Below, in pieces: positions 11,537-13,274 of a stretch of DNA of 64,000 nucleotides. The position numbers were made by a program, and so were the translations under genes. Numbering within the stretch: the first letter of the stretch is position 1; each line of letters opens with the position of its first letter. The stretch is from Cloacibacterium caeni (GTDB taxonomy: Bacteria > Bacteroidota > Bacteroidia > Flavobacteriales > Weeksellaceae), in NCBI RefSeq assembly GCF_907163125.1, contig NZ_OU015319.1, forward strand, positions 186,001 through 250,000, written 5' to 3'. A model generated the notes under the pieces. It was not told the origin of the DNA, did no database searches, and saw only the letters and a program-made list of their open reading frames with translations.

Positions 11537-12328
11537 ATGCAATCAGAAAAAATAATTGAAAGAATAGTTTCTTGGCTAAAAGATTACGCTGAAAAAGCAG
11601 GTGTAAAAGGTTATGTAATTGGAGTTTCTGGTGGAGTAGATTCTGGTGTGGTTTCTACACTTTGCGCCATGACTGGATTGAAAGTTTTGGCTCTAGAAAT
11701 GCCGATTCGTCAACAAAAAGATCAAGCTTCTCGTGCTTTAGAGCATATAGAATTTCTAAAAAATAAATTTCCAAATGTGGAAGGTTTTTCGGTTGATTTA
11801 AATGAACCTTTCGAAGCGTTGTACAAAACTTTTGATGTAAAAGATAATGAATTTCCTGCCGAAAAATTGGCTTTTGCCAATACCAGAAGCAGATTGAGAA
11901 TGCTAACTTTGTATTATTACGGACAAATCAATGGACTTCTCGTTTGTGGAACTGGGAATAAAGTGGAAGATTTCGGGATTGGTTTTTACACGAAATACGG
12001 AGATGGTGGAGTAGATGTTTCGCCGATTGCTGATTTGTACAAAACCGAAGTATATGCTTTGGCAAGAGCTTTAGATTTGCCAGAATCTATTAAAAATGCG
12101 ATTCCTACAGATGGACTTTGGGATGTGGATAGAACAGATGAGCAACAAATTGGCGCAACGTATCCCGAATTAGAAAAAATTCAAAAAGAATGGGGAACCA
12201 AAACCGAAGCAGATTACAACGGTAGAGATTTAGAAGTTTACCAAATTTTCAGCAGAATGCACAAAGCTGCGCAACATAAAATGAACCCAATTCCGGTATG
12301 CGATATTCCGGAAGAGTGGAGAGATTGA
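11537..12328 (+). CDS. nadE: NAD+ synthase, ammonia-dependent
   Basis: 263 residues. The ATP pyrophosphatase P-loop SGGVDS is at 31-36, and GTGNKVEDFGIGFYTKYGDGGVDVSPIADLYKT is the typical ammonia-dependent NadE motif. It has no N-terminal glutaminase domain, so it should use free ammonia to turn deamido-NAD into NAD+. It is divergent from gldB, and the barnase-like gene follows 37 bases downstream on the same strand. Confidence 0.95.
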   Translation: MQSEKIIERIVSWLKDYAEKAGVKGYVIGVSGGVDSGVVSTLCAMTGLKVLALEMPIRQQKDQASRALEHIEFLKNKFPNVEGFSVDLNEPFEALYKTFDVKDNEFPAEKLAFANTRSRLRMLTLYYYGQINGLLVCGTGNKVEDFGIGFYTKYGDGGVDVSPIADLYKTEVYALARALDLPESIKNAIPTDGLWDVDRTDEQQIGATYPELEKIQKEWGTKTEADYNGRDLEVYQIFSRMHKAAQHKMNPIPVCDIPEEWRD

Positions 12329-12365: not shown

Positions 12366-12926
12366 ATGGAAAAAAATAAAAATTTAATCTATATAGTCCT
12401 TGCTTTTGTGGCAGGATTATTATTGATGTATCTTTTCAATAACTACAAAATTGAGAAGAAAAATGAAGTAAATAATCAAGAAGTTACCTATCAGAAATCT
12501 GAAAATAAAGATAAAAACTATATTGATGATTATACAATAAAAAATTATGAAGATAAGAAGAATGAATATTCCCATCCTTCTGATAATTCAGAAAATATTG
12601 ATGAACTTACCAATGATGAATTGGTGGTAAAATATCTAAAAGAACACGGCGAATTACCCGATTATTACATCACAAAATCCGAAGCAAAATCTTTGGGTTG
12701 GGTTCCGAGTAAAGGAAATCTTTGCGAAGTTGCTCCCGGAAAAGCTATAGGTGGTGATATCTGGACAAACCGTCAAAAATCGCTCCCAATAAAATCTGGA
12801 AGAAAATATTTCGAAGCAGACCTTAATTACAATTGCGGCAATAGAAATGCAGATAGAGTAGTGTTTTCTAATGATGGTTTGGTTTTCGTGACGTTTGATC
12901 ATTACAGAAGTTTTGAGGAAAAATAA
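12366..12926 (+). CDS. membrane-anchored barnase-family ribonuclease
   Basis: 186 residues. Residues 1-6 are short and basic, 7-25 a transmembrane anchor, and 26-77 a charged Lys/Asn/Glu/Asp linker. Residues 78-186 align without gaps to barnase 1-109 (offset 77). PDYYITKSEAKSLGW, GKAIGGDI and FDHYRSF are nearly those of barnase. The catalytic set is intact: K104 (K27), E150 (E73), R160 (R83), R164 (R87) and H179 (H102). C120 and C157 fall on barnase A43 and S80. It should cleave RNA, preferring guanine, and the anchor suggests an extracytoplasmic domain. No promoter is seen in the 37-base gap after nadE, so read-through is likely. A barstar-like gene follows. Confidence 0.92.
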   Translation: MEKNKNLIYIVLAFVAGLLLMYLFNNYKIEKKNEVNNQEVTYQKSENKDKNYIDDYTIKNYEDKKNEYSHPSDNSENIDELTNDELVVKYLKEHGELPDYYITKSEAKSLGWVPSKGNLCEVAPGKAIGGDIWTNRQKSLPIKSGRKYFEADLNYNCGNRNADRVVFSNDGLVFVTFDHYRSFEEK

Positions 12927-12989: not shown

Positions 12990-13274
12990 ATGGAAGTATA
13001 TATAGATTTTTTAGAAATTGGAGATTACGAGGATTTTTATGCTCAACTGAAAGAAAAATTGACTTTACCAGAGCATTTCGGGGATAATCTCGATGCGCTT
13101 TTTGATGTGATTACAGGCGAATTAGAAATGCCGCTTCATTTAGAATTTGTCAATATGAGCGTAGAGCAATTAGAAATTTTCGAAGATTTACTTACTACTT
13201 TAGAAGATGCGGAAGATGAGGTAGAAGATTTTACTTTTGCCTATTATCTAGAGCAATATGAAGATGAGGAATAA
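12990..13274 (+). CDS. barstar-family ribonuclease inhibitor
   Basis: 94 residues aligning to barstar with the same numbering through the inhibitory helix: LTLPEHFGDNLDALFDVITG against the barstar [20 protein letters not shown]. The RNase-binding D35 and D39 are kept, while Y29 is His and W38 is Phe. The position of E76 appears to be Asp. The tail is very acidic (YYLEQYEDEE), matching the basic active site of the RNase. It has no signal peptide, so it should neutralise enzyme that stays or misfolds in the cytoplasm. It lies 63 bases after the barnase-like gene, with its own likely promoter. Confidence 0.9.
   Translation: MEVYIDFLEIGDYEDFYAQLKEKLTLPEHFGDNLDALFDVITGELEMPLHLEFVNMSVEQLEIFEDLLTTLEDAEDEVEDFTFAYYLEQYEDEE

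What the first reader, a model, noticed from the sequence alone, without database searches (positions are those of the whole stretch)
12366..12926. Natural barnase homologue carrying Cys at barnase positions 43 and 80
Seen: the RNase domain (residues 78-186) aligns to barnase without gaps at an offset of 77, and its only two Cys, C120 and C157, fall on barnase A43 and S80. Known: A43C/S80C was made in barnase as an engineered disulfide that stabilises the fold. Inference: this lineage evolved the same bridge, which fits an enzyme that folds outside the cytoplasm behind the N-terminal transmembrane anchor. The engineered design appears to have a natural counterpart.
Basis: partly seen in the sequence, partly recalled or inferred. 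Interest (0 to 1): 0.78.

Follow-up and report, generated by a model that had tools for sequence, protein, structure and literature searches.

The report
Gram-negative barnases share a cysteine pair
This gene encodes a probably membrane-anchored cousin of the bacterial RNA-cutting enzyme barnase that carries the same pair of cysteines that protein engineers once built into barnase as a cross-link, and the pair was present in every Gram-negative barnase examined and in none of the Gram-positive ones.

Summary
The ORF at 12366-12926 aligns without gaps to barnase 9-107 (58 of 99 identical). Its only two Cys fall on barnase 43 and 80; the three best PDB hits have Cys at both places, among them 1BNE, the A43C/S80C disulfide mutant. 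An AlphaFold model superposes on 1BNE at 1.0 Å over 106 residues. A barstar gene follows.

The interpretation needs widening: the pair is not an invention of this lineage. All 150 places found in 296 genomes of the window's family carry it, as do all other full-length Bacteroidota and Pseudomonadota barnases read. Of 267 distinct full-length domains, 223 of 223 Gram-negative ones have both Cys, 44 of 44 from Bacillota have neither, and none has one. On trees built without the Cys columns this is a single, well-supported change. Two Paenibacillales copies carry C40/C82 instead, plausibly a separately evolved staple of the same loops.

Open: whether the bond forms. No DsbB or VKOR was found in the genome; a cysteine-parity test showed no disulfide signature but was underpowered.

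The parts
12366..12926 (+). barnase-family ribonuclease with N-terminal hydrophobic segment, 186 aa
   Evidence: PF00545 49.8 bits, cut-off 24; 58/99 identical to barnase 9-107; AF2 model Z 18.5, rmsd 1.0 A over 106 residues to 1bne
12387..12440 (+). hydrophobic, probably membrane-spanning segment, about residues 8-25
   Evidence: mean hydropathy 2.87 over 15 residues, no lipobox or AXA pattern by crude patterns; helix 2-37 in the model; orientation not tested
12465..12590 (+). linker predicted disordered, residues 34-75
   Evidence: pLDDT under 50
12597..12923 (+). RNase domain, residues 78-186
12723..12725 (+). Cys120 = barnase position 43
   Evidence: Cys in 223 of 223 distinct full-length Gram-negative domains, 0 of 44 from Bacillota
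12834..12836 (+). Cys157 = barnase position 80
   Evidence: Cys in 223 of 223 distinct full-length Gram-negative domains, 0 of 44 from Bacillota
12990..13274 (+). barstar-family inhibitor, 94 aa, no Cys; starts 63 bases after the RNase stop codon
   Evidence: PF01337 E 1.3e-18; barstar 1ab7 E 1.1e-9; gap and sequence

Best explanation
The gene encodes a barnase-type ribonuclease, held to the membrane by an N-terminal helix and displayed on the far side, with its inhibitor barstar made from the next gene to protect the cytoplasm. C120 and C157 form one disulfide, equal to the engineered 43-80 bridge, joining the short helix at 119-122 (barnase 42-45) to the loop between strands 148-153 and 163-168 (barnase 71-76 and 86-91). 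It stabilises the folded enzyme in the periplasm. The pair is a fixed, inherited feature of the Gram-negative branch of the barnase family, not an invention of this lineage. Shown: fold, register, conserved catalytic residues, barstar neighbour, strict pairing and fixation of the two Cys, one change on the tree. Inferred: that the bond forms in the cell, that it stabilises, the membrane orientation, and RNase activity.
For: Gapless alignment, Cys on 43 and 80. Model superposes on 1bne at 1.0 A over 106 residues, Z 18.5; secondary structure. Residues recalled as important in barnase (K27, R59, E73, R83, R87, H102) are all kept in the window; E73, R83, R87 and H102 are invariant in 172 Gram-negative and 38 Bacillota domains, K27 in 169 and 38, R59 in 170 and 35. 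Of 267 distinct full-length domains 223 have both Cys (all Gram-negative), 44 neither (all Bacillota), 0 one. All 150 places found in the window's family have both. Best 80 of 479 relatives in named genomes: 79 with both, one Paenibacillus with Q/G. Bacillota sample: 11 of 11 places with neither. C43 and C80 are 2 of 19 invariant columns among 172 Gram-negative domains; among 38 Bacillota domains column 43 ranks 2nd of 99 for variability. Trees without the Cys columns: one change, support 99/94 and 98/96. Two Paenibacillales domains carry C40+C82 as the only Cys.
Against: No DsbB (E<=1) and no VKOR (E<=0.1) found in the window's genome; none of the 7 sampled genomes of its genus has VKOR. Exported proteins of the window's genome show no excess of even Cys counts: 17 even, 21 odd, against 70 and 79 in its cytoplasmic ones, p 0.86; E. 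coli K-12 by the same crude method gave 10 and 5, difference p 0.22, so the test is underpowered. No S-S distance measured. The trees are unrooted, rest on 94-96 columns, and their bootstraps had not settled: gain in Gram-negatives and loss in Bacillota cannot be told apart. The scan required C, W or A at position 43 in one of its two patterns, a mild bias. Only Bacteroidota, Pseudomonadota and Bacillota were surveyed.
Confidence: 0.8

Rival explanations
1. The Cys pair is a relic: the common ancestor of all barnases had the bridge and Bacillota lost it; where kept, it matters little now.
For: One change on an unrooted tree fits a loss as well as a gain.
Against: Both Cys are kept in 172 of 172 distinct Gram-negative domains whose mean pairwise identity over 3000 sampled pairs is 63% and lowest 47%; that is not what a neutral relic gives.
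Confidence: 0.1
2. The two thiols stay reduced and do another job, such as metal binding or a mixed disulfide with a partner.
For: No DsbB or VKOR found in the genome and no parity signature in exported proteins.
Against: The positions are those of the crystallised barnase disulfide mutant (1BNE title). Apart from the two Cys, only Y24 and A74 are invariant in the Gram-negative domains and not in the Bacillota ones, so no further metal ligand stands out.
Confidence: 0.07
3. As to why Gram-negatives have it: shared ancestry plus transfer between Bacteroidota and Pseudomonadota, not an adaptation to the periplasm. This can hold together with the best explanation.
For: One change on the tree, so Gram-negative against Gram-positive is a single contrast with no statistical weight of its own.
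Against: Fixation of both Cys in both phyla, and the C40/C82 pair on its own branch in Paenibacillales, argue for selection on bridging these loops, though the second case is in a Gram-positive.
Confidence: 0.35

Closest known systems
Barnase A43C/S80C (PDB 1BNE, 6PQK)
   Same: same fold (rmsd 1.0 and 1.2 A), Cys at both equivalent positions
   Different: engineered in an enzyme described as cysteine-less (PMC4742420, passages); here natural, with an N-terminal hydrophobic segment
Barnase and binase of Bacillus, with barstar
   Same: PF00545 domain, catalytic residues, barstar gene next door
   Different: barnase has A43/S80 and is a secreted enzyme; here a Cys pair, no lipobox or AXA pattern after the hydrophobic segment and a linker of about 40 residues predicted disordered
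Paenibacillales barnases with C40/C82 (L362, L363)
   Same: two Cys as the only Cys, at positions near 43 and 80
   Different: different residue pair, own clade inside Bacillota; geometry not measured
RNase Sa/Sa2/Sa3
   Same: distant fold relatives, Z 7.3-7.8, 19-26% identity
   Different: aligned over 77-80 residues only; RNase Sa's own disulfide is elsewhere (recalled)

Membership tests
Barnase-type ribonuclease (PF00545) | profile match over curated cut-off | tested here: met
   49.8 bits against 24
Barnase-type ribonuclease (PF00545) | barnase fold | tested here: met
   AF2 model, blocks from residue 81 on at pLDDT 79-96; Z 16.0-19.0 to the barnase and binase entries listed, 18.5 to 1bne
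Barnase-type ribonuclease (PF00545) | catalytic residues K27, R59, E73, R83, R87, H102 (list recalled) | tested here: met
   all present in the window protein
Barnase-type ribonuclease (PF00545) | guanyl-preferring RNA cleavage | not testable with these tools
   needs an assay
Barnase-barstar pair | barstar gene beside the RNase | tested here: met
   PF01337 E 1.3e-18, 63 bases downstream; a same-strand barstar match within 3000 bases downstream in 231 of 242 loci, duplicates included
43-80 disulfide barnases (1BNE type) | Cys at both 43 and 80 | tested here: met
43-80 disulfide barnases (1BNE type) | sulfurs within bonding distance | not testable with these tools
   coordinates are not returned; only superposition on 1bne at 1.0 A
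43-80 disulfide barnases (1BNE type) | bond formed in the native cell | tested here: inconclusive
   no DsbB or VKOR found; Cys parity underpowered

The most novel reading that the evidence does not exclude
The 43-80 bridge acts as a compartment lock: Gram-negative barnases need it to fold, so the reduced enzyme is unstable and harmless in the cytoplasm and becomes active only after oxidation outside, adding a safeguard to barstar; and bridging these two loops has been selected at least twice, once as 43-80 and once as 40-82.
Probability: 0.18. Interest if true: 0.7.

Novelty: new variant of a known kind. Interest (0 to 1): 0.5.

Why it matters
Barnase is a standard model for protein folding (recalled), and the 43-80 disulfide was built to study its stability and folding. 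If the bridge is the wild-type state of the Gram-negative half of the family, there is a natural set of sequences on either side of one branch on which the stability, folding route and evolution of a designed disulfide can be tested. It also raises a direct question: how a fixed disulfide is made in a genome in which neither DsbB nor VKOR was found.

Tried and rejected
Rejected: chance placement of the Cys (survey); a misaligned register (gapless, and the three best PDB hits have Cys at both places); a gain special to this family. PADLOC defence models: no match for RNase or barstar at E<=0.1. NCBIfam: nothing over its cut-offs for the RNase, nothing for barstar. Phage records: no match. Viral contigs: none with the window protein, two partial relatives with the alignment.

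Led nowhere: the S-S distance (no coordinates returned); Cys parity of exported proteins, underpowered; VKOR as a correlate: 24 of the 42 VKOR-positive genomes carry the RNase (handles compared), near the family rate of 146 of 296. Papers: no text on a natural 43-80 pair was seen, but this shows little. The searches were made; several matched 100 or more papers of which only the top 10-20 were listed; I read passages of nine, and the library lacks most subscription journals. The original papers on the engineered bond were seen only as reference-list titles.

Dropped before counting the 267: domains with under 90 of 99 columns filled, namely RNase Sa-type relatives (L109, L111, L215-L223, L225, L257-L273), L224 (not recovered by my profile), L195 and L196 (viral, 65 columns), L309 (cut by a stop, both Cys present) and L364 (distant, neither Cys). 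Identical domains were merged; the 300 loci behind them include some places fetched twice and the window's own gene twice. In Paenibacillales 39 of 51 places were read. The structure alignment used 60 of the 80 loci.

Full report
WHAT IS THERE. The ORF at 12366-12926 (+) encodes 186 residues: a hydrophobic segment at about 8-25 with no lipobox pattern, a stretch predicted to be disordered at 34-75 and a ribonuclease domain (PF00545, 49.8 bits against a cut-off of 24). A barstar-family gene (PF01337, E 1.3e-18) starts 63 bases after the RNase stop codon. Upstream on the same strand is an NAD synthase gene (11537-12328). The RNase is the only PF00545 match found in the genome.

THE CYSTEINES. 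Residues 86-184 align without a gap to barnase 9-107, 58 of 99 identical; Cys 120 and 157 are the only Cys and fall on 43 and 80. phmmer against the PDB ranks three chains with Cys at both positions first (6pqk, 7mrx, 1bne), and the titles of 1BNE and 6PQK name A43C/S80C. The 6PQK title also shows that a barnase with this pair can bind a barstar.

STRUCTURE. AlphaFold2 on the window protein with 60 aligned relatives gave 99 residues at pLDDT 90 or more; from residue 81 on the ten-residue blocks lie at 79-96, the lowest being 151-160, which holds C157. VIA-align puts the model on 1bne with Z 18.5 and rmsd 1.0 Å over 106 residues, model 81-186 on chain 4-109, and on other barnase entries with similar scores.

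SURVEY. In the window's family 146 of 296 genomes have a PF00545 match, at 150 places. All 150 were read, and all carry both Cys; a recount of exactly these places is (one of them, L309, is cut by a stop after both Cys). In the order sample the 26 matching genomes of 296 are all of this family. In the phylum sample three matches lie outside it: one full-length barnase with both Cys (L110) and two RNase Sa-like domains. In the order of a Chitinophagaceae MAG 22 of 119 genomes match: 5 have barnase-type domains, all with both Cys, and 17 are RNase Sa-like, without Cys at 80 and with no aligned position 43. The scan of named genomes found 479 relatives and kept the best 80: 79 with both Cys, from Enterobacterales and Bacteroidota, and one Paenibacillus with Q43/G80. 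In a sample of 299 Pseudomonadota 14 genomes match; 4 have full-length barnases (one is the centre genome itself), all with both Cys, and the rest are short, RNase Sa-like matches. In a sample of 299 Bacillota 11 places in 9 genomes have neither, and so have Acetoanaerobium and Aerococcus and the 39 Paenibacillales places read of 51.

COUNTS. Merged, 300 loci give 267 distinct full-length domains: 223 with both Cys (149 from the window's family, 63 Pseudomonadota, 11 other Bacteroidota), 44 with neither (all Bacillota), none with one. Every distinct full-length Gram-negative domain has the pair. In the earlier set of 210 (172 Gram-negative, 38 Bacillota), C43 and C80 are 2 of the 19 columns that are invariant in the Gram-negative domains, beside E73, R83, R87 and H102; in the Bacillota domains column 43 ranks second of 99 for variability.

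ORIGIN. Trees built without columns 43 and 80 and without 40, 43, 80 and 82 put the Cys-bearing domains on one side of one branch, support 99/94 and 98/96. They rest on few columns and their bootstraps had not settled, so the values are rough. The pair changed once, by gain or by loss; the trees are unrooted. Two Paenibacillales domains (L362, L363) have A43/S80 but C40 and C82, their only Cys, and form their own clade inside Bacillota. That these bridge the same two loops is an inference from their positions; if so, it is a second origin of the same staple.

CAN THE BOND FORM? The window's genome shows no DsbB at E<=1 and no VKOR at E<=0.1. None of 7 sampled genomes of its genus and 42 of 163 of its family have VKOR. 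A crude parity test on 464 kb of its genome found 17 exported proteins with an even and 21 with an odd number of Cys, like its cytoplasmic proteins (70 and 79, p 0.86). E. coli K-12, 450 kb by the same method, gave 10 and 5; the difference between the two is not significant (p 0.22). So this neither supports nor excludes general oxidative folding. DsbA was not searched. The fixed pair in such a genome means that an unrecognised oxidant makes the bond, that it forms on its own, or that it does not form.

READING. The link with folding outside the cytoplasm is weaker than claimed, since barnase itself is described as a secreted and cysteine-less protein (PMC4742420, passages seen), and since Gram-negative against Gram-positive is a single contrast on the tree.

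Noticed in passing
L362, L363 (G1526, G1546, order of Paenibacillus): Barnase-type domains with C40 and C82 as the only Cys, a possible separately evolved bridge between the same two loops.
   Followed up: partly
L032, L034, L037, L042, about 680-780 bases between RNase stop and barstar start: A gene for a protein with an HELGHTQGL motif (archaemetzincin-like by recalled motif) lies between RNase and barstar in these relatives, but not in the window. In L032 its frame is split by a stop.
   Followed up: partly
L037 (G089, same genus as the window): Nearly the same membrane segment and barstar as the window's genus, but the RNase domain is only 61 of 99 identical to the window's and groups elsewhere in the tree, as if the domain had been replaced. 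The assembly has about 120 contigs, so a chimera is not excluded.
   Followed up: partly
window genome G000: No match to DsbB or VKOR. Exported proteins are poorer in Cys than cytoplasmic ones (0.47% against 0.80%), as in E. coli (0.44% against 1.41%).
   Followed up: partly
L195, L196 (IMG/VR contigs): Two viral contigs encode a partial barnase-like stretch covering about residues 14-78, without an aligned C-terminal part.
   Followed up: no
L309 (G114): The RNase frame is interrupted by a stop near the C-terminus in one genome of the window's family; both Cys are present.
   Followed up: no
L113, L205-L209; L204, L210, L211, L249, L251: One Bacillota subgroup has a Cys at position 74 and another a Cys at 22, without C43 or C80.
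   Followed up: no
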